60,747 bases of DNA from NCBI GenBank assembly GCA_030531495.1, contig JAUNNJ010000003.1:14065-74811 (forward strand), read 5' to 3'. Positions 12,921 through 40,102 of the stretch are shown here, in pieces. The notes under the pieces are model-generated. The model searched no databases. It was not told the origin of the DNA and saw nothing but the letters and a program-made list of their open reading frames with translations. The stretch comes from Bacteroidales bacterium. Its GTDB lineage: Bacteria > Bacteroidota > Bacteroidia > Bacteroidales > Muribaculaceae. Both the position numbers and the translations under genes were made by a program. Position 1 is the first letter of the stretch. Every line of letters starts with the position of its first letter.

Positions 12921-13319
12921 TTATTTCACCACGGGTTGTCCGGCGCCAGTCCAACCTTGGTAACCGGTGTTGAGTTCCACCACTTGATAGCCTTTGCTGC
13001 TCAGGATGTCGGCAGCTTTCTTGCTGCGTCGTCCGCTGCGGCAGTAGAGTGCCACGGTCTTGTCTTTGGCAAGTGCCTGTTCTGCTTTTTGCTCAAATCC
13101 GTCGGCAAGCACATCGATGTTGAGCGCACCTTCAATGTGGCCTTCTGCGTATTCTTCTGCAGTGCGTACGTCGAGGCGTGTGACAGTGCTGTCGCTAATC
13201 ACTTCCGCAAATTTTGTCACTTCCACCGATTCGTACGCCTTGTCGCCAGCATTGGCCTTGCATCCAGCCAAAGCGAGTATCGCAGAGAATAATCCCATAA
13301 TAATCTTTTTTTTCATCAT
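12921..13319 (-). CDS. Rhodanese-domain lipoprotein
   Basis: 132 residues. Signal peptide with lipobox LALAGC, so it is lipid-anchored in the periplasm. A single rhodanese domain (VTRLDVRTAEEYAEGHIEGA … VALYCRSGRRSKKAADIL) keeps the active-site Cys in CRSGRR; it probably carries persulfide sulfur or serves thiol redox. It is monocistronic, with TAAATTTG at 13369-13376 (minus). Confidence 0.88.
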   Translation of the reverse strand: MMKKKIIMGLFSAILALAGCKANAGDKAYESVEVTKFAEVISDSTVTRLDVRTAEEYAEGHIEGALNIDVLADGFEQKAEQALAKDKTVALYCRSGRRSKKAADILSSKGYQVVELNTGYQGWTGAGQPVVK

Positions 13320-13531: not shown

Positions 13532-15212
13532 ATGACTGATACGACTCAAACGATTCTTTCTCTAAAGAGTGATGAAGTAAGTATTAAAGTATTTCCTTAA
13601 TTCTCGCCAGTACCACGGTTTTGAACTGCCGGAGTATTACAATTTCGATGCGGTTCTCCAATTTGTGAAAGACACTGTAGCAGACAAGCTTTATGAGGAG
13701 TGCATCAATCAAAACCCTGCTAATGTGACTGATGTGAATCTTGACATTTTGCTCAACAAAGACGGGCATTACGCCGTGCGCCCGATGATGCTCGCCAATC
13801 CTTATCTGTATTATTTTCTGGTCAGAGAGTTGGCTACTAATTGGGATGCCATCAAAAATTGTTTCTCCAAGTATCGAGTGCCCGATATTGAGGCGTGTTC
13901 TGTTCCTGTCGTGAGAAATTTTAATGAAAAGTTTTTCAACTCCACTACAGTGTTTAGCTGGTGGCGCAATATGGAGCGTAAGTCGGTGGAATTGTCGCTC
14001 GACTATCGCTATATGTTTGTGACCGACATTACCAATTGTTACGGCACCATCATCCCTCAATCCATTGATTGGGCTTTGGCGCTTAAAGACACGGCGTTTG
14101 AAACCGATAGCAACAAAGCGTTGTCCACCAACATTAAAACTCTCCTCGGTGCCATGCAGAAGGGACACAACATTGGTATACCGCAAGGTAGTGCTGTATT
14201 TGATTTTGTAGCAGAAATAGTGTTGGGCTATTCCGACCTGTTGCTTTATGAAACCATTAAGGCCGATCCTGAAATCACAGCCGACTACAAGATTTTGCGC
14301 TATCGCGACGACTATCGTGTGTTCTGTAACGACAAGGACCAGCTGGAGCATATTTTCTACCACCTTCAGGAAGTGCTCGAATCGCTCAATTTCCGAATGA
14401 ATAGCAAAAAAACGAAGATGAGCGATTCCATCATCACCGATTCCATCAAACCGGAGAAGCTGGATTATATCTACAACACGCCCATTGTTAATAAAGACTG
14501 GTGTGCGTTCCGTGGCTTAGAGAAGCATTTGCTCTACATTCTGATGTTCTCTCGTCGTCATCCTAACTGTGGCTATCTGAAAGTGTTGCTCAATGATTTC
14601 GACAAGCGGGTAATCGAAACACTGAAGCCCCGTAGGGTAGAATTAATATCATCATTGGATTTGTCGCAACTCTTCTGTGATTCAGACAATGAATCGAATG
14701 ATGAACCGGAAGAAGATAAGCAGGAAAAAGCCCCTGAACCAAGATACATTGAGCGCCCTGGCAGAATCGTGGAGAGCGTACGTGCACTCGCGGCAATAGC
14801 CACACAAATTGCAGTTGAAAATGTGTCGTCGGTTCCCTACGCACTGCGTGTGGTTAGCCGAATGGTGAATTCTGTGACGGATGAGGCTGAAAAATGGAGT
14901 ATTTTTATGAGTGTGGTGAGAAAACTCAGGAAATTGCCTAATTCAAACTATACTCAACTTTGGTTGCAGCATATCACCTACCAAGTGGAGCGTATTCAAG
15001 GCGTTGCGCCTTATCCGATGCGCCTTTGTCAATTGGTGTCGGGGAAAGATGTGGATGTGTGGAACAACTCTTGGCTTATGCCACAACTCACCGAAGGGTT
15101 CCCAATCGAAACAGTTGCCGACCGTGAGAAACTCAAAAAGCTTACACCTGTGATTGAGTTTGTGGAGCGTTACACCTACGATTCGGATGTGGAACCGGAA
15201 GAAGGCGAGTAA
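13532..15212 (+). pseudogene. UG/Abi-like (defence-type) reverse transcriptase with an N-terminal frameshift
   Basis: The main frame is open from after TAA 13578 to 15212. It encodes RT motifs: Asp in YMFVTDITNCYGTI, NIGIPQGSAVFDFV, and the catalytic YRDD in LRYRDDYRVF, then a helical C-terminal region of ~250 residues with an acidic stretch (DNESNDEPEEDKQEKAPEP). There is no intron maturase or retron-type end; it resembles the Abi/UG ('DRT') reverse transcriptases linked to phage defence, subtype not assigned. The ATG at 13532 opens another frame (MTDTTQTILSLKSDEVSIK…) that stops at 13598-13600. A +1 shift near 13586-13590 joins it to YFLNSRQYHGFELPEYYNF, giving 559 residues. The only in-frame start after the break is GTG 13665, which would lose the conserved N-terminal segment. 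It may be a pseudogene, a programmed shift or a sequencing error. Confidence 0.8.
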
Positions 15213-15330: not shown

Positions 15331-15350
15331 GCTTGAAAACTTTTACGATT

Positions 15351-16415
15351 ATGAAAAAGAAAATATTATCACTAGTAAGTATTGTTGCCCTTGCTCTTCC
15401 ATCTGTGATGGTGGCCGAAACGCGCGATGAAATCGCAAAAATTGGGCAAAATGTGGGCGTTGAAGGCAAGTTCTGTTATTGGTCAGAGGGTAGTGTGCCA
15501 TTGGCTAAGCTCAAGAGTTTTGTGGAAAATGTCACCAATCCTTCAAGCGATGGATTTGTGCCTCAGTCCGATCGTGTGGCTGTGTTTGATCTCGACGGCA
15601 CCCTCGTGTGCGAAACCGCTCCTTCGTATTTTGAATGGATGATGTATTTGCACCGCGTGTTTGATGACCCTACTTTCAAACCCACGAAAGAACAACTTGC
15701 CACTGCTGAAATCATCAAGAAGGCTGTATATGCTCGTTCGGTGCCTGGCGATATGATGTGGACCGAAGCCATTGCGCAAAATGATGTGTTTGCCGGGATG
15801 ACTCCAGAGCAGTATCGCAACTACACGCTCGATTTTATGAAGGCACCTGTAGAAGGAATGAAAAACCTTCAGTGGGGTGAAGCTATCTATTTGCCAATGG
15901 CAGAGGTGGTTGGCTATCTTGCTGCAAACGGATTTACCACTTATGTAATCTCTGGTAGCGAACGCCAAGTAACTCGTGTATATACAGAAGGGGCTTTGGC
16001 GTTTGGCCGAAACCACATTATTGGCTCCGACATTCATACCTATGCCACCACCCAGGGCGAAAAAGAAGGCTGGGACTATTCATTCAAGCCAACCGACGAC
16101 GTGATTCGTGGCGCAATGTATGTGAAAAATTTGAAAATGAACAAGGTAAGTGCCATCGTGCGCGAAATCGGTTTCAAGCCAATTTTGGCTTTCGGCAATT
16201 CGTCGGGCGATTTTAGTATGTTTGAGTATTCCGTTGTGAAAAACCGTTATCCAAGTATGGCATTCTGCGTGCTTGCCGATGATGTGGTGCGTGAATATGG
16301 CAATCCTGCTAAGGCAGCGAAGATGAAAGCTTCGTGCGATGAGAAAAACTGGGTAACCATTTCAATGAAAGATGATTTCAAAACCATTTACGGCGAGAAG
16401 GTAACCAAGGAATAA
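15351..16415 (+). CDS. Secreted HAD-superfamily phosphatase
   Basis: 354 residues from the ATG giving MKKKILSLVSIVALALPSVMVA, a signal peptide; the periplasm is expected. HAD motif I is VAVFDLDGTLV (~residue 80), motif II YVISGSERQ and motif IV FGNSSGDFSMFEY. A helical cap lies between motifs I and II. It resembles HAD/PSP-like nonspecific periplasmic phosphatases of Bacteroidota; substrate unknown. It is monocistronic, with a hairpin in its leader and a strong terminator after it. Confidence 0.85.
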   Translation: MKKKILSLVSIVALALPSVMVAETRDEIAKIGQNVGVEGKFCYWSEGSVPLAKLKSFVENVTNPSSDGFVPQSDRVAVFDLDGTLVCETAPSYFEWMMYLHRVFDDPTFKPTKEQLATAEIIKKAVYARSVPGDMMWTEAIAQNDVFAGMTPEQYRNYTLDFMKAPVEGMKNLQWGEAIYLPMAEVVGYLAANGFTTYVISGSERQVTRVYTEGALAFGRNHIIGSDIHTYATTQGEKEGWDYSFKPTDDVIRGAMYVKNLKMNKVSAIVREIGFKPILAFGNSSGDFSMFEYSVVKNRYPSMAFCVLADDVVREYGNPAKAAKMKASCDEKNWVTISMKDDFKTIYGEKVTKE

Positions 16416-16440
16416 TTCCGTCAAAATCTTAAGTAAGATA

Positions 16441-16484
16441 AAAGTGCCGACGATTGCAATTTAGCTTCGTCGGCATTTCTTTTG
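16441..16484 (+). terminator. Terminator of the HAD gene
   Basis: AAAGTGCCGACGA pairs with TCGTCGGCATTTCTTTT. Confidence 0.85.
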
Positions 16485-16493
16485 GTGGTATAG

Positions 16494-16530
16494 TAAAAAA
16501 AACGCTCCAGAAGAAAATCTTCCAGAGCGT
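16494..16530 (-). terminator. Terminator of rpoD
   Basis: On the minus strand ACGCTCTGGAAGA pairs with TCTTCTGGAGCGT and is followed by a run of eight T. Confidence 0.85.
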
Positions 16531-16555
16531 GTAAATCTTTGATTTTTGGAACGGG

Positions 16556-17413
16556 TTATCCCAAATATGACTTAAGAAGTTTACTCTTTTGGCCTTTAAG
16601 ACGGCGGATAGCCTTCTCCTTGATTTGGCGTACGCGTTCGCGAGTGAGGTCGAACTTAGCACCAATTTCTTCAAGCGTCATTTCTTGGCAACCAATACCG
16701 AAGAACATCTTCAAAATGTCGCGTTCGCGAGGATTCAGTTGTTCAAGGGCGCGATTCACTTCCTTAGAAAGTGATTCTTGGTTAAGTGAAGAGTCGGCCA
16801 TTGGAGAATCTTCGTTAGGAAGCACGTCGAGCAGACTGTTGTCTTCACCATCAACGAATGGAGCGTCGACCGATACGTGGCGGCCTGAAACCTTCATTGT
16901 GTCGGCAATCTTTTCAACGGGCACGTCGAGTTGCTCAGCCAATTCTGCTGGTGAAGGACGGCGTTCGTTTTCTTGCTCGAAACGTTGAAGTGCCTTACCA
17001 ATCTTGTTGAGCGAACCCACCTGGTTGAGAGGAAGACGCACGATGCGCGATTGCTCTGCCAATGCTTGGAGAATGGATTGACGAATCCACCATACAGCGT
17101 AAGAGATGAACTTGAAGCCGCGAGTTTCATCGAATTTCTGGGCTGCCTTGATGAGGCCGAGATTACCTTCGTCAATCAAGTCGGGAAGACTCAATCCTTG
17201 GTTTTGATACTGTTTTGCCACAGATACTACAAATCGGAGATTCGCGCTTACAAGTTTGTCGAGGGCTGCCTGATCACCTTGTTTAATCTTTTGAGCGAGT
17301 TCCACTTCTTCGTCTACGGTGATAAGGTCCTTGCGGCCAATTTCCTGCAAGTACTTATCGAGAGAAGCGCTCTCGCGATTGGTGATCGACTTTGTAATCT
17401 TAAGTTGTCTCAT
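16556..17413 (-). CDS. rpoD: RNA polymerase sigma-70 factor, primary (RpoD)
   Basis: 285 residues, the normal short length of the Bacteroidota housekeeping sigma, which has no region 1.1. Region 1.2 ([23 protein letters not shown]), 2.1-2.4 (…[39 protein letters not shown]), region 3 and the 4.2 helix-turn-helix ([27 protein letters not shown]) are all intact. It recognises the TAnnTTTG-type promoters seen in this window. Its own promoter, TAACTTTG (17440-17447, minus), lies 26 bases before the ATG. Compare the paralogue at 18393. Confidence 0.95.
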
Positions 17414-18392: not shown

Positions 18393-19253
18393 CTATTGGC
18401 AGATGAAAGGCACCAAATTCGAACTTTTGCTTCCGCGAAGTCGGCGGATGGCGCGTTCCTTGATTTGGCGTACGCGCTCGCGGGTCAAATCGTAGATGAC
18501 GCCTATTTCCTCGAGGCTTTTCTGTGGGCCATCAATGCCAAATGCCATACAGAGAATGCCTTTTTCACGGCTTGTGAGTTGTGCGAGTGAGCGGTGTATC
18601 TCTTTCGAGAGGTCTTCTCTTTGAAGAGTTGAATCGGTTGACGGCTCGTCGTCATTCGAAAGTACGTCAAGCAGGCTGTTGCTGTCGTCCTTTTCCGAGA
18701 ATGGTGCGTCCATCGACAGCGACTTCCCGTTAGCGCTCATTGAGCTTTGAATTTTGTCGACCGACAAGTCGAGGATTTCAGCCAATTCGTCTTGCGAAGG
18801 GTAGCGTTCGTGCTGTTGCTCAAAGGCAGTGATGGCTTTGTTGATGCTGTTGATGGTGCCCACCTGATTCATAGGAAGGCGCACCAAGCGCGATTGCTCT
18901 GCCACGGCTTGCAGAATGGATTGGCGAATCCACCACACTGCGTAGGAGATGAATTTAAAGCCAAAAGTGTCGTCAAACTTTTGCGCAGCCTTGATGAGAC
19001 CGATGTTGCCCTCGTTAATCAAGTCGCACAAGCTCAATCCCTTGTTCTGGTATTGCTTAGCCACCGACACCACAAAGCGTAAATTGGCAGTAATCAATCG
19101 TTCAGAGGCCTTTTGGTCGCCTTGCTTGATTCTTTGAGCGAGTTCCACTTCCTCATCCATCGTAATCATCTCTATTCTGCTGATTTCTTGCAAATAGGTG
19201 TCAAGAATAGGTTCGCGTACGGTGATTGAGTTTCCGATTTTAAGTTGTCGCAT
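18393..19253 (-). CDS. Second RpoD-like sigma-70 factor (group 1/2 paralogue)
   Basis: 286 residues, alignable end to end with the RpoD encoded at 16556. Region 2.3-2.4 ([31 protein letters not shown]) and the 4.2 helix ([18 protein letters not shown]) are nearly identical, so it should read a similar promoter. Differences collect in region 3 (TINSINKAITAFEQQHERYPSQ), the acidic linker and the extreme C-terminus (GSKSSNLVPFICQ). It is likely an alternative or stationary-phase/stress sigma acting in the cytoplasm, inferred from its paralogy. It has no clear TAnnTTTG in the 80 bases upstream, unlike rpoD. Confidence 0.9.
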   Translation of the reverse strand: MRQLKIGNSITVREPILDTYLQEISRIEMITMDEEVELAQRIKQGDQKASERLITANLRFVVSVAKQYQNKGLSLCDLINEGNIGLIKAAQKFDDTFGFKFISYAVWWIRQSILQAVAEQSRLVRLPMNQVGTINSINKAITAFEQQHERYPSQDELAEILDLSVDKIQSSMSANGKSLSMDAPFSEKDDSNSLLDVLSNDDEPSTDSTLQREDLSKEIHRSLAQLTSREKGILCMAFGIDGPQKSLEEIGVIYDLTRERVRQIKERAIRRLRGSKSSNLVPFICQ

Positions 19254-27746: not shown

Positions 27747-27797
27747 CCCGCAAAATGAATTACCAACCCCATTTGCTGATAAAAAATTATAACAGTG

Positions 27798-28223
27798 ATG
27801 AAAATGAATACAAACATTTATATGAAGAAGTTGCTCAATTCTTGCTCTATCATCTGCGCATGCGCGGCGATAGCATTCTCTTCATGCAACAGCGATACCC
27901 CGGACGATGTTAATTACAAACGCGTCATTATAATAAGAAATTCAGGAAATAGTCTGCCGCATCTATATGAACCAGTTGTCGCTTATGAAGCAGCGTCTTC
28001 CACTATCTCCATCAACTTTGGTGTTCAGCCAATAGGCTATCATACGGTTACGATTTCGAATCCTTATGCCGATGTTGACTATTATGCAACATCTTCGGTT
28101 GCAAAGTTTCCCCTTGTAGTGGACGGAAAAAGCGACTATTCTATTTCCATCGAAACTGCTGAAGGAAATGTATTTCAAGGAGTCCTTCAGGCAAGTGAGT
28201 ATGCAGACATAATAGAGAATTAG
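27798..28223 (+). CDS. Small lipoprotein, DUF3244-like beta-sandwich (unit 1)
   Basis: 141 residues from ATG 27798, or 133 from ATG 27822 (MKKLLNSCSIICACAAIAFSSC), which has the more typical lipobox. The mature part (VNYKRVIIIRNSGN … STISINFGVQPIGYHTVTISNP … GKSDYSISIETAEGNVFQGVL) has the strand pattern of the DUF3244 family of small secreted Bacteroidales proteins; that match is by pattern only. It is 35 bases upstream of serpin 1 and repeated in unit 2, so it is probably a functional partner of the serpin. Confidence 0.7.
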   Translation: MKMNTNIYMKKLLNSCSIICACAAIAFSSCNSDTPDDVNYKRVIIIRNSGNSLPHLYEPVVAYEAASSTISINFGVQPIGYHTVTISNPYADVDYYATSSVAKFPLVVDGKSDYSISIETAEGNVFQGVLQASEYADIIEN

Positions 28224-28258
28224 AACATCATTTATCACTCATCAAAAAAATAGACAAT

Positions 28259-29512
28259 ATGAAAAAAACATTTCTTTACAGCTCTATCATTTGTGCATGC
28301 GCGATGATGGCATTTACCTCCTGCAACAATAGCGACGAGCCTAATGTTGAGAACGAGAAGCCTGCACAATATAGTATCCAGCTTACGGCACCACAGCAAA
28401 AGGTGCTGAGCCAGAGTAACGATTTCGCCTTCGATGTGCTCAAAACCATCAACAATGAAGATGGCAATGTGTTCGTGTCGCCCTACAGCCTCGGACAAGC
28501 TATCGGCATGCTCGCTAATGGCGCCGAAGGACAAACTTACGATGAAATTGCTGCAGTGCTAAAAATTGGTGATGGAACCTCATTGGACGATATCAACAAC
28601 TATTATGCAGACATGAACACCGCTCTAACGAGCATCAAGTGCTCATCGCAATTTGCTGTTGCCAATTCGCTGTGGACGAACAAAAGACACAACATTCTGG
28701 ACATCTACAAATCCGATATGAAGAGTCACTTTGGTGCGAAGGTTGAAAGTCTCGACTTCTCCGACAGCAAATCTTTTGCGCTAATCAATGATTGGGTTAC
28801 CGAGCAGACTGCAGGCCTTATTCCAAGCATTGTAGACAAATGCAGTGTGGGTGCAGATGCCGCCATGCTCATTAATAGTGTGTACTTCAAAGGGCTTTGG
28901 AGTTATTTCAAAAAGGAAAAAACGCATGACGATATTTTCCGCAACCAGTTCGACCGCAACGAAAAAGTGAAAATGATGAAATCGGCAGAGGCTCTTTTTA
29001 ACGGATGCACTACCGACGACGAACTTGCTGTGGAATTTGACTACGGAGGCAAGGCTTTCCAATTGATGGTAATTATGCCCAAAAAACAGAAAATCAACGA
29101 ATACATCGCATCGTTCAACGGTGCGAAATATACGGAACTGCTTTCGTATATGAAACAGAGTCGTGCCGTAGCGTCTTTACCAAAGTTTAAACAGACCTAC
29201 AATAATAATTTAAAGGCTCCACTCGAAAAAATGGGCATTTTAAGAGCATTTGGCGACGCTGCACAATTTCCGAAAATTTCAGAACATGATGGATTGTGCG
29301 TGACCGACGTGCTTCAGAAAACCACAATTGAGGTGAATGAAGAAGGCTCAGTTGCGGCAGCTGTCACAAGGGTAGATTATGGAGACACCTCTCCTGGATT
29401 CCTTCCGAAAGAATTCACTATCGACCATCCGTTTATCTATCTGATTAAGGAACGCACCACTGGTGCTATCCTCTTTATCGGCAAGGTCCAAAGCATGGCA
29501 GGCATGCAATAA
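28259..29512 (+). CDS. Serpin-family protease inhibitor lipoprotein (unit 1)
   Basis: 417 residues. Lipobox AFTSC at residue 22, then CNNSDEPNVENEK, an acidic stretch like those that send Bacteroidota lipoproteins to the cell surface. Serpin signatures: NVFVSPYSLGQAIGMLANGAEGQT, FAVANSLWTNK, MLINSVYFKGLW, FQLMVIMP, hinge VNEEGSVAAAV, and C-terminal DHPFIYLIKERTTGAILFIGKV. The alanine-rich hinge argues for an inhibitory serpin. Counting from the hinge Glu, the scissile P1 would be about Thr in GDTSPG. Likely traps host or microbial serine/cysteine proteases at the cell surface. Confidence 0.92.
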   Translation: MKKTFLYSSIICACAMMAFTSCNNSDEPNVENEKPAQYSIQLTAPQQKVLSQSNDFAFDVLKTINNEDGNVFVSPYSLGQAIGMLANGAEGQTYDEIAAVLKIGDGTSLDDINNYYADMNTALTSIKCSSQFAVANSLWTNKRHNILDIYKSDMKSHFGAKVESLDFSDSKSFALINDWVTEQTAGLIPSIVDKCSVGADAAMLINSVYFKGLWSYFKKEKTHDDIFRNQFDRNEKVKMMKSAEALFNGCTTDDELAVEFDYGGKAFQLMVIMPKKQKINEYIASFNGAKYTELLSYMKQSRAVASLPKFKQTYNNNLKAPLEKMGILRAFGDAAQFPKISEHDGLCVTDVLQKTTIEVNEEGSVAAAVTRVDYGDTSPGFLPKEFTIDHPFIYLIKERTTGAILFIGKVQSMAGMQ

Positions 29513-29690
29513 GTGCAACAATTTCCCTTAGAAGGTACATCAGGGCATGGATAAGATTTTAGTTGATCATAGTTAATGTTATTGGTGCCCTGGTGGTAAA
29601 AATAGTTAATGCTTAGGTAATCGGTGTGAAAAATGTTTAGGATTGTGGATAACGCTGGCACTGGCTGTCGCATGTGAGAATGGTGATTTG

Positions 29691-29698
29691 TATTTTTG
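29691..29698 (+). promoter_or_regulatory. -7 element, unit 2
   Basis: TATTTTTG, same context as at 27739. Confidence 0.45.
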
Positions 29699-29749
29699 CC
29701 CGCAAAATGAATTACCAACCCCATTTGCTGATAAAAAATTATAACAGTG

Positions 29750-30175
29750 ATGAAAATGAATACAAACATTTATATGAAGAAGTTGCTCAATTATTGCTCT
29801 ATCATCTGCGCATGCGCGGCGGTGGCATTCTCTTCATGCAACAGCGATAACTCGGCCGATGTTAATTACAAACGTGTCATTATTATAAGAAATTCGGGAA
29901 ATAGTCTGCCTCATCTATATGAACCTGTTGTTGTTTATGAAACAACGTCCTCTATTATTTCCATCAATTTTGGCGTTCAGCCAATAGGCTATCATACGGT
30001 TACGATTTCAAATCCTTATGCTGATGTTGATTATTATGCAACATCTTCGGTTGCAAAGTTCCCCCTTGTGGTGGACGGAAAAAGCGACTATTCTATCTCC
30101 ATCGAAACTGCTGAAGGAAATGTATTTCAAGGGGTCCTTCAGGCAAGTGAATATGCAGACATAGTAGAGAATTAG
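29750..30175 (+). CDS. Small lipoprotein, DUF3244-like (unit 2)
   Basis: 141 residues, a close copy of the protein at 27798 with about ten substitutions by eye (for example SC to YC in the signal, TPDD to NSAD after the lipobox Cys, AYEAASSTI to VYETTSSII, and IIEN to IVEN at the end). Same lipobox and strand pattern. The changes leave the fold residues intact, so both copies should be functional. Confidence 0.7.
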   Translation: MKMNTNIYMKKLLNYCSIICACAAVAFSSCNSDNSADVNYKRVIIIRNSGNSLPHLYEPVVVYETTSSIISINFGVQPIGYHTVTISNPYADVDYYATSSVAKFPLVVDGKSDYSISIETAEGNVFQGVLQASEYADIVEN

Positions 30176-30210
30176 AACATCATTTATCACTCATCAAAAA
30201 AATAGACAAT

Positions 30211-31467
30211 ATGAAAAAAACATTTCTTTACAGCTCTATCATTTGTGCATGCGCGATGATGGCATTTACCTCCTGCAACAATAGCGACGAGCCTAATGTT
30301 GAGAACGAGAAGCCTGCACAATATAGTATCCAGCTAACGGCTCCACAGCAAAAGGTGCTAAGCCAAAGTAACGATTTCGCTTTCGACGTGCTCAAAACCA
30401 TCAACAAAGAAGATGGCAATGTATTCGTTTCGCCATACAGTCTCGGACAAGTGCTTGCTATGCTCGCTAATGGTGCAGAAGGACAAACATACGATGAAAT
30501 TGCAACAGTGCTAAAAATTGGCGACGGCACTTCATTGGACGATATCAACAGCTATTACTCAACGATGAACAGCACGCTCACCACAATTAATAGCTCTGCA
30601 AAATTCATGGTTGCCAATTCGCTTTGGCTCAACAAGAATTACAATGTTTTAGAAAGCTACAAGACTGACATGAAGTCGTTCTTTAATGCTAAGGTTGAAA
30701 CATTGGACTTCTCCGACAGGAAAACTGTGGACCTTATCAATAATTGGGTGAAAGAATCGACCAACGGCCTTATCCCAGGCATTGTTGATGAGGTAGATCC
30801 AGTTTTTGATTGTGCATGGCTTCTTAATAGTTTGTATTTCAGGGGATTTTGGAAATACTTTCCCAAAAAGAATACCTATGACGACACTTTCTACAATAAG
30901 CAGAACAATGGTGAAAAGGTGAAGATGATGAAGTCGGACGAGTGTTATCTGAACGGGTGCATCACCAAAGAAGAGTTGGCGTTAGAGCTCACTTATGGCG
31001 GCGAGGCGTTCCAAATGATGGTGATTATGCCGAAGAGCGAAAGAATCAACGACTATATCAATGCACTTAATGGAGAAAAGTATGCCCAAGTTCTTTCTCA
31101 AATGACCAAAAATGAATCTGAAGTGATTATGCCCAAGTTCAAGAGCATATACAATAATGATTTTAAAGACGCTCTTAGAGCAATGGGGATGTCGAGAGTG
31201 TTGTCAGACAATGCTCAGCTTGGGAAAATGACAACAGTCAAAAATGTACACCTTTCAAAGATCCTTCAAAACACTTCAATTGAGGTGAATGAAGAAGGCA
31301 CGATTGCTGTTGCCACAACAGGAGGGAAGGTGACAGGCGTTATTGATGATATCCCTCAAATTATTAAGTATGTTATCGACCGTCCGTTTATCTATCTGAT
31401 TAGGGAACGCACCACTGGTGCTATCCTCTTCATCGGCAAGGTCCAAAGCATGGCAGGCATGCAATAA
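30211..31467 (+). CDS. Serpin-family protease inhibitor lipoprotein (unit 2)
   Basis: 418 residues, paralogue of serpin 1. The first 65 residues and the last ~20 are identical to serpin 1, but the middle is only about half identical (for example ESYKTDMKSFFNAKVETLDF, VDPVFDCAWLLNSLYFRGFW). The hinge is VNEEGTIAVATT, less canonical (Val and Thr in place of Ala), and the reactive loop is entirely different: GGKVTGVIDDIPQ, with P1 near Val by counting. It still carries the breach and C-terminal strands. Probably same location and mode of action as serpin 1 but a different target protease. Confidence 0.92.
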   Translation: MKKTFLYSSIICACAMMAFTSCNNSDEPNVENEKPAQYSIQLTAPQQKVLSQSNDFAFDVLKTINKEDGNVFVSPYSLGQVLAMLANGAEGQTYDEIATVLKIGDGTSLDDINSYYSTMNSTLTTINSSAKFMVANSLWLNKNYNVLESYKTDMKSFFNAKVETLDFSDRKTVDLINNWVKESTNGLIPGIVDEVDPVFDCAWLLNSLYFRGFWKYFPKKNTYDDTFYNKQNNGEKVKMMKSDECYLNGCITKEELALELTYGGEAFQMMVIMPKSERINDYINALNGEKYAQVLSQMTKNESEVIMPKFKSIYNNDFKDALRAMGMSRVLSDNAQLGKMTTVKNVHLSKILQNTSIEVNEEGTIAVATTGGKVTGVIDDIPQIIKYVIDRPFIYLIRERTTGAILFIGKVQSMAGMQ

Positions 31468-38232: not shown

Positions 38233-39923
38233 TTATTCGATTGGGAGAATTGTTTTATAGTTCTTCCAAGGCTTGGTGTTCTGATAGCGCTCCAACGATT
38301 GTGCAGGCACATAGAGTGGCACCTTCTTTTCGCTGTCGCTCTTCAAAGCAGGTGGAGTGGTGGCCAAAACCACAATCTTCTGCAAATTCTTATTCTTTTC
38401 CACCATCTTTTTATCAATCACTTGCACGGTGCTTGGAATGGTGAGGCTCAGCAGATTGCAGTTGTCGAGCGCACTTTCTTCAATGATTTTCAGACCTTCG
38501 TTAAGAGTGATACTTGTCATGCTGTGACATTCGTTGAACGCTTTGTACGACAAAGTAATAACACTACCAGGCACTACCACGTCATCAAGCGATTTACAGT
38601 TACGGAACGCTTCTTTTCCAATGCTGCGGAGGCCTTCTGGGAATTTGATGATGCGCAACGATTCGCAGTCGCGGAATGCATCTTGACCAATGTCGGTCAG
38701 CGATGCTGGCAAATCCACTTGCACCATCTTTTTGCAACCTTTGAATGTGCCTTTTCTCACTTCGGTCAAGCCTTCAGGGAGCACGAAAGATGTGATTGAA
38801 GAGCATCCACTGAATGCTTCATCGCCAATGGCTTTAAGTGTAGCGGCAAAACTGATGTTCGACAGATTCGAGCATCCACTGAATGCGCCGGCACCGATAG
38901 TGGTGGTGGATTCTGGAAGGTAGACCTTCTCACGCCACTTCCTGAAAAAGCATATTTGTCGATAAGTGTCACACCTTCTGGTACTTTCACATCGCCGCCA
39001 CGACCCGTTGGGAAGATGGTGAGAGTGGCGCCATGGTTGGTATACAACACTCCATCAACAGACGAATAAACTGGGTGTCCGTTTTCCACATTGATGCTGG
39101 TGAGTGTTGGTATTGAACCGATGCTGCCTTCCAAATTCAGCGATGCAGGAATGTCGAGGCGGGTGAGCTTTGTGTTGGAGAATGCTCTTTCACCCACTGT
39201 GCGCAGATTCTCAGGGAAGCGGATGTCGCGAATAGGGCAGTATCTGAATGCTTCCGAACCAATCTCTCTCAGTGTGCGAGGAAGGTAAACATTTGGAAGT
39301 TCGGAACAGCTGTAAAACGCCTGTCTGCCGATTCTTTCCAACCCATCTGGGAGGTCGACACGGCGAAGGTGTCGGCAGCTATAGAATGCTTCGTCGTCGA
39401 TGAAGCGTACGCCGCGTGGCATCATCACGTCTTCCAAATTGCTGCAGCCGGAAAATGCTTTTTTGCGAATGCAGTTGGTCCATTCTGGAAGCACTATTGA
39501 ACGGAGTGCTGAGCAATTATAAAACATATAATCGCCAATTTCCTCGCGTGTTGAACGATAACCTGAATAATAACTTCCACCGCTCACAATGCGTGCACGC
39601 GACAAGTCGAGGTCTACATAATTGTCAATCGAGCGGTCGTTGCTGTCGTAGCAGCTACCTCGTGAGCAAAGTTTTCTCAATACTGCGATGTCTTCACCAT
39701 TAATCTCGCCATCGATGATGACCATTCGGGCATAGCGCATTTCGCGTTCCGTGATTTTTTCACGCAAGCGGCCAGGATAGCCTGCACGAATGTCCAACAC
39801 GTCGGAATAACCGCGGCGGTAATAACTATCAGAACTTGTTCTACCATAGGCCTGTGCCATAGCTGGAATAGAGCATGCAAGAGTGGCTGCACAGAGTAGA
39901 ATTGTGACTAATTTTTTTTTCAT
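38233..39923 (-). pseudogene. BspA-like leucine-rich-repeat protein with a frameshift
   Basis: A signal peptide (MKKKLVTILLCAATLACSIPAMA) opens at ATG 39923. The frame encodes repeats of the LRR_5 (TpLRR) type (MFYNCSALRSIVLPEW, FSGCSNLEDVMMPRG, FYSCRHLRRVDLPDG). Near 38925-38932 the repeats break: the first frame reads FSGSGVRRSTFQNPPPLS and continues without repeats, while the other frame resumes VYLPESTTTIGAGAFSGCSNL and runs on to 38233 with a Lys-rich end and ILPIE. One missing base in AGAAGG explains it. The whole would be about 563 residues, exported and probably surface-exposed, with adhesion or host binding as the family role. Confidence 0.82.
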
Positions 39924-39963
39924 AGATAATATGGTTGAATCTGTTTTGTTTATTTTATATGTG

Positions 39964-39971
39964 CAAATATA
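39964..39971 (-). promoter_or_regulatory. -7 element of the BspA-like gene
   Basis: TATATTTG on the minus strand, 40 bases before the ATG at 39923. Confidence 0.45.
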
Positions 39972-40102
39972 CAAAAAATTTAGCAACAACCTACATCACT
40001 ACCTATAAATGGGGATTTTAATCACTTGTTGTTAACAACTAATGCTTATTGCGGCTTCCAATTTACCATATTTTGGTGATTTCTCACCATCGTATTTAGC
40101 CA

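What the first reader, a model, noticed from the sequence alone, without database searches (positions are those of the whole stretch)
13532..15212. Defence-type reverse transcriptase broken by a single +1 shift at codon ~19
The YRDD-containing RT is open for ~545 codons, but its conserved N-terminal segment YFLNSRQYHGFELPEYYNF has no in-frame start; the ATG 13532 frame supplies the missing start and a +1 step near 13586-13590 joins the two. The rest of the gene is intact, which is unexpected for an old pseudogene. It could be a switch, a programmed shift, a recent loss, or an assembly error. No companion genes are adjacent, as for one-gene RT defence systems.
Basis: partly seen in the sequence, partly recalled or inferred. 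Interest (0 to 1): 0.8.

Follow-up and report, generated by a model that had tools for sequence, protein, structure and literature searches.

The report
Recently broken Abi-P2 phage-defence reverse transcriptase
A gut bacterium's one-gene anti-phage enzyme (an Abi-P2 type reverse transcriptase) carries a short repeat near its start that throws the reading frame off, so this copy is most likely a recently lost version of a known defence gene rather than a new mechanism.

Summary
The RT is real and is an Abi-P2 polymerase: PADLOC AbiP2 E 2.2e-151, next family 2.2e-35; solved Abi-P2 7r08 E 8.7e-54. Its frame (13581-15212) has no ATG/GTG/TTG before GTG 13665. A syntenic sister copy, 88% identical, reads in one frame from the equivalent of ATG 13532. 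So do 17 of 17 fetched homologues with a readable 5' end. The lesion is not one base at 13586-13590: the window is 4 nt longer than the sister where a 4-mer stands twice (13575-13583). The body looks undecayed: 73 of 73 invariant residues kept, dN/dS 0.125, lineage changes 14 versus 14. The equivalent of the priming Tyr61 is encoded at 13635-13637, upstream of GTG 13665, so a canonical internal start would lose it. Two other species of the genus keep only internally deleted remnants, so loss recurs. Best reading: recent natural loss of function. An artefact cannot be excluded without reads; a programmed shift has no support from homologues. Largely ordinary.

The parts
13532..13600 (+). 5' piece of the Abi-P2 gene: ATG frame, 22 codons then TAA 13598-13600
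   Evidence: 15 of 16 first residues equal to the sister gene L007
13575..13583 (+). site of the lesion: a 4-mer standing twice in tandem, the window being 4 nt longer here than the syntenic sister
13581..15212 (+). body of the Abi-P2 reverse transcriptase, open frame without a canonical start before 13665
13635..13637 (+). codon for the tyrosine that aligns with the protein-priming Tyr61 of Abi-P2 (7r08)
   Evidence: alignment; Y61F inactive in PMC9508834; Tyr in 17 of 17 homologues
13626..13628 (+). in-frame CTG, the only near-cognate start (of CTG, ATT, ATC, ATA) between the in-frame stop and the priming tyrosine
13665..13667 (+). GTG, first canonical in-frame start of the RT body, downstream of the priming tyrosine
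14301..14312 (+). catalytic YRDD (residues 238-241 of the body read from 13590)
   Evidence: YRDD, FRDD or YVDD in the 16 homologues that reach this place
12921..13319 (-). upstream neighbour: rhodanese-domain protein, divergent
   Evidence: also beside the RT in G041 and G043
15345..16415 (+). downstream neighbour: HAD-like hydrolase
   Evidence: same order in L007

Best explanation
An Abi-P2 polymerase gene of a Muribaculaceae bacterium has recently been knocked out by a 4-nt tandem duplication after codon 16. Translation from the native ATG 13532 stops after 22 codons. A protein begun at any canonical start in the RT frame (GTG 13665 or later) would lack the conserved N-terminal segment with the tyrosine that primes DNA synthesis, so it should be dead as a protein-primed polymerase. 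Shown here: family, frame break, intact homologues, position of the tyrosine, absence of visible decay in the body. Inferred: that the lesion is a real mutation in the cells and that the product is inactive. The working enzyme, by analogy with Abi-P2 of E. coli prophage EC30, would make DNA without template, primed from its own tyrosine, as part of abortive infection.
For: AbiP2 profile over residues 1-532, E 2.2e-151; 7r08 E 8.7e-54; P2-EC30 RT aligned over the full length at 27.8%. Sister gene with the same neighbours in one frame. 17 of 17 homologues with a readable 5' end continuous. 73 of 73 invariant residues kept. dN/dS 0.125; lineage changes 14 vs 14 with 33 unresolved. Priming Tyr between the break and GTG 13665. 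Loss recurs in the genus: of five genomes of 101 with recognisable Abi-P2 sequence, two have an intact frame (G041, G043), the window's is broken, and two keep only remnants with the RT domain deleted (G017, G009).
Against: No reads and no second strain of this species were available, so the lesion rests on one draft MAG (78% complete, 144 contigs). Strong conservation of the body could also mean that the gene is still expressed by recoding. Priming loss is inferred from one in vitro study of a homologue about 28% identical, whose authors note its limits for the in vivo case.
Confidence: 0.78

Rival explanations
1. The extra 4 nt are an assembly or strain-mixture artefact; the gene in most cells is continuous.
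For: Draft MAG; no reads. A second frame break lies on the same contig (BspA-like LRR gene near 38.93 kb).
Against: Frame breaks are rare in the sampled part of this assembly: 1 frame-split and 3 stop-only among 105 comparable sister ORFs, plus this RT, which that test cannot see. A 4-nt tandem repeat is not a typical homopolymer error (general knowledge).
Confidence: 0.14
2. The gene is still expressed at a low level by +1 recoding between 13581 and 13597, or by restart at the near-cognate CTG 13626, which would keep the priming tyrosine.
For: Body conserved. The two frames overlap over 17 nt that include a Pro codon before the stop, a site where a P-site slip is imaginable (sequence; inference). 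CTG 13626 lies upstream of the tyrosine.
Against: No other copy examined has the break: 17 of 17 homologues are continuous. No unusual downstream structure (z -0.26). A recent loss leaves the same conservation.
Confidence: 0.06
3. The tandem 4-mer is an on/off switch: gain and loss of the repeat toggles a costly suicide enzyme in the population.
For: Two tandem copies of a 4-mer can in principle revert (general knowledge).
Against: Only two copies; tandem 4-mers are common, 245 start positions in the window or about 4 per kb. The sister DNA has no such pair here; the other homologues were compared as proteins only.
Confidence: 0.02

Closest known systems
Abi-P2 reverse transcriptase of E. coli P2-like prophages (P2-EC30; PDB 7r08; PMC9508834)
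   Same: Best family by far; full-length alignment, catalytic DD, priming tyrosine in the LPxYxxF segment; one gene.
   Different: About 28% identity to P2-EC30; here it lies between rhodanese and HAD genes, with no phage gene recognised among the neighbours scanned with Pfam (no dedicated prophage search was run); reading frame broken after codon 16.
Intact Abi-P2 homologues of Muribaculaceae (L007, L003, L008-L019, L020, L022, L023)
   Same: Same N-terminal pattern; L007 is syntenic and 88% identical.
   Different: All 17 have one continuous frame over their readable length (L020 and L023 run off contig ends); only the window copy is broken.
AbiK, DRT4 and UG14 type RTs
   Same: Share the RT domain; significant profile hits.
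   Different: Scores far below AbiP2 (best E per group 2.2e-35 to 9.3e-21 versus 2.2e-151).

Membership tests
Abi-P2 | Sequence match to the family profile over nearly its whole length | tested here: met
   PDLC03744 E 2.2e-151, profile 18-485 of 489
Abi-P2 | RT palm with catalytic aspartates | tested here: met
   RVT_1 above its cut-off; DD at residues 240-241 of the body, present in the 16 homologues that reach this place
Abi-P2 | C-terminal helical domain in place of a thumb | tested here: inconclusive
   Profile match runs through the C-terminus but the 7r08 alignment there is weak, i-Evalue 0.95; no structure predicted
Abi-P2 | Priming tyrosine in the N-terminal loop (Tyr61) | tested here: met
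   Codon present at 13635-13637 and aligned with Tyr61, but upstream of every canonical start in its frame
Abi-P2 | One continuous open reading frame | tested here: not met
   Broken in the window; continuous in 17 of 17 homologues. By descent a family member, by state a broken copy
Abi-P2 | Trimer and template-independent, protein-primed DNA synthesis | not testable with these tools
   biochemistry
Abi-P2 | Protection against phage | not testable with these tools
   needs a phage assay
Programmed +1 frameshifting | The two-frame layout is conserved in homologues | tested here: not met
   17 of 17 homologues in one frame
Programmed +1 frameshifting | Stimulatory structure or signal near the shift | tested here: inconclusive
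   No unusual fold downstream, z -0.26; other stimulators not tested

The most novel reading that the evidence does not exclude
The short repeat turns a suicidal Abi polymerase into a low-output or reversible allele: recoding in the 17-nt frame overlap, restart at CTG, or loss of the repeat in rare cells still gives active enzyme, so the population keeps the defence at low cost.
Probability: 0.06. Interest if true: 0.6.

Novelty: new member of a known kind. Interest (0 to 1): 0.25.

Why it matters
It documents natural loss of a single-gene Abi-P2 defence in a Muribaculaceae lineage whose sister species keeps an intact copy in the same place, within a genus where two further species keep only remnants. 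It shows why such a break should not be bypassed by a canonical internal start: the priming tyrosine lies in the lost piece. Gene callers would probably start the gene at GTG 13665 (inference), and a defence survey would then count it as active when it probably is not.

Tried and rejected
Rejected: GTG 13665 as the native start. Homologues begin about 40 or more residues earlier and the conserved LPxYxxF segment lies upstream of it. Rejected: a companion-gene system. The rhodanese gene was found in 83 of 101 genus genomes; of the 30 loci returned (L032-L061, about 1.5 kb flanks), 3 have the RT beside it: the window, its sister and G043. It was not seen within the fetched flanks of the family homologues. 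Rejected: old pseudogene.

Led nowhere: viral contigs had no pattern match. Genome contigs gave one locus, the sister. Promoter and terminator scans were uninformative. The chance fold of the 5' region was ordinary. Of the paper searches only PMC9508834 was opened; the other papers were seen as listings with the start of the abstract.

Limits: one search read several loci on the wrong strand (those whose gene lies on the minus strand), so only its plus-strand rows count; one search repeats the reading with the right strands. L021 starts at a contig end and shows no 5' end; L002 and L007, and L013 and L024, are the same genes. The frame-break census compared 105 of 323 sister ORFs; it is blind to breaks within about the first tenth of a gene and scored this RT itself as not broken. 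Its three stop-only cases in the window's genome were not examined one by one. In the reverse direction it compared 103 of 686 ORFs: 92 intact, 8 stop-only and 3 frame-split, one of which is the BspA-like gene that is broken in the window. Column invariance was counted on 14 homologues; L013, L020 and L023 were left out of that count (L020 and L023 are cut by contig ends; L013 has an insertion). In one search, 33 of 61 differing residues could not be assigned to a lineage. The genus hit G026 (25% identity) was not classified; it looks like a different RT.

The odds of the readings were left as they were; interest was raised from 0.22 to 0.25.

Full report
Observation. The RT frame runs from 13581 to the stop at 15210-15212, 543 codons. 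It follows TAA 13578-13580, and its first ATG/GTG/TTG is GTG 13665. An open run of 540 codons is not chance (about 4e-14 at this composition). ATG 13532 opens a 22-codon frame ending at TAA 13598-13600.

Identity. Of 57 PADLOC families matched at E 0.01, AbiP2 is far ahead (E 2.2e-151, residues 1-532 on profile 18-485 of 489; second RT_UG14 2.2e-35). Pfam gives RVT_1. The best solved relative is 7r08, E 8.7e-54. That table names it only 'Reverse transcriptase'; that it is Abi-P2 of E. coli prophage EC30 I take from recall together with PMC9508834, whose residues Tyr46 and Tyr61 are tyrosines at those numbers in the chain. In the phage collection 6 records match; the RTs of P2-EC30, P2-EC58 and pro147 align over the full length at 28-29%. 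PADLOC, PDB and phage results agree on the family. PMC11077055 (start of the abstract in the listing) says that AbiA, AbiK and Abi-P2 mediate defence against phages.

Relatives. In the genus, 6 of 101 genomes (window's own included) have a hit at E 0.001. Three are near full length: the window's genome, G041 (89%) and G043 (57%). Two (G017, G009) are remnants, see below, and G026 (25%) was not classified. In a 397-genome sample of the family, 18 have a hit at 1e-30, own genome included. G041 carries the record found in genome contigs (JAKSMA010000079.1, Muribaculaceae bacterium, horse faeces). Its gene order around the RT is the same: an HMGL/LeuA-domain enzyme (CimA-like is my recall), rhodanese, RT, HAD, sigma factor. 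In that copy one frame runs from the ATG equivalent to 13532 to the end. Of the fetched homologues whose 5' end lies on the contig, 17 of 17 read in one frame from an upstream ATG through the conserved segment (L021 begins at a contig end and cannot be judged).

The lesion. Window and sister differ by 4 nt at 13575-13583, where a 4-mer stands twice in the window. This is the only indel between ATG 13532 and the stop whose length is not a multiple of three (the other two total 9 nt). Tandem 4-mers by themselves are common, 245 start positions in the window, so the repeat alone signals nothing; the comparison does.

Is the rest decaying? Not visibly. The window keeps 73 of 73 residues that are invariant in 14 homologues. 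Pairwise dN/dS to the sister is 0.125; four neighbouring genes give 0.013 to 0.223. With G043 as outgroup, 14 amino-acid changes fall on the window lineage and 14 on the sister lineage, 33 unresolved. Loss must be recent relative to the split, or function persists.

Why an internal start should not rescue it. PMC9508834 (outline with abstract, passages and section 21 seen) reports that Abi-P2 Y61F makes no DNA while Y46F is normal in vitro; the authors add that host factors and limits of the assay must be considered. In the alignment residue 1 of the window body aligns with residue 46 and residue 16 with residue 61. Residue 16 is the tyrosine of the LPxYxxF segment, Tyr in 17 of 17 homologues, codon 13635-13637. 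It lies upstream of GTG 13665. The only near-cognate codon (CTG, ATT, ATC or ATA) between the in-frame stop and this tyrosine is CTG 13626. Starting at GTG 13665 or beyond should give a polymerase without its primer (inference).

Loss recurs in the genus. In G017 and G009 the Abi-P2 gene is reduced to short open frames of 134 and 119 residues: the N-terminal piece is followed directly by the last 75-95 residues, with the whole RT domain gone. The deletions end at different places and both leave an open frame; the two products are 43% identical, and G009 lacks the priming tyrosine. A search with the 134-residue form found it in no other of 101 genus genomes, and in a 394-genome family sample only longer Abi-P2 genes, plus short open frames in G332 (84 codons, near a contig start) and G302 (88 codons, N-terminal part only), which I did not examine.

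Artefact? In 105 of 323 sister ORFs comparable with the sampled part of the window's genome, 101 were intact, 3 had a stop only and 1 was frame-split. So the assembly is not riddled with frameshifts, though two breaks (this and a BspA-like LRR gene near 38.93 kb) lie on one contig. The test is blind to breaks in about the first tenth of a gene. Without reads the artefact remains open at about one in seven (judgement).

Recoding or switch? No homologue examined has the two-frame layout; the 100 nt downstream fold like shuffles (z -0.26); two copies of a 4-mer are a weak switch. These stay as low-probability readings.

Verdict. A member by descent of the known Abi-P2 family, in a broken state, most likely by recent natural mutation. 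Mostly ordinary; the position of the priming tyrosine makes the loss-of-function inference sharper than usual.

Noticed in passing
L004:1492-1896 (minus strand; G017) and L005:1381-1740 (plus strand; G009): Two other species of the genus have RT-less 'mini Abi-P2' open frames (134 and 119 aa): the N-terminal segment followed directly by the C-terminal end, 43% identical to each other, with different deletion junctions and both still open. Decay remnants, or possibly a small protein kept for its own sake; no other example of this layout seen in 101 genus and 394 family genomes.
   Followed up: partly
38233-39989 (minus strand): A second frame break on the same contig: a BspA-type LRR_5 protein gene split into two overlapping pieces near 38.93 kb; the sister genome (L084) has it as one 585-aa frame.
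   Followed up: partly
14364-14611: A 248-nt run identical to the sister inside an RT gene whose other 150-nt bins are mostly 79-94% identical, suggesting recombination between the lineages; but longer identical runs occur nearby (413 nt at 16248-16660), so it is not unusual for this contig.
   Followed up: partly
27795-31467: A duplicated pair: a 142-aa protein without a Pfam match (copies 93% identical) followed by a serpin (copies 65% identical, first 60 residues identical), i.e. two tandem serpin modules in a gut bacterium.
   Followed up: partly
16556-17413 and 18393-19253 (minus strand): Two sigma-70 family genes, 66% identical, with one gene between them; the sister has the same pair, the second cut by the end of the locus.
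   Followed up: partly
L013 (G302): An Abi-P2 homologue with an open frame of 660 codons, longer than the others owing to extra sequence between query residues 380 and 392.
   Followed up: no
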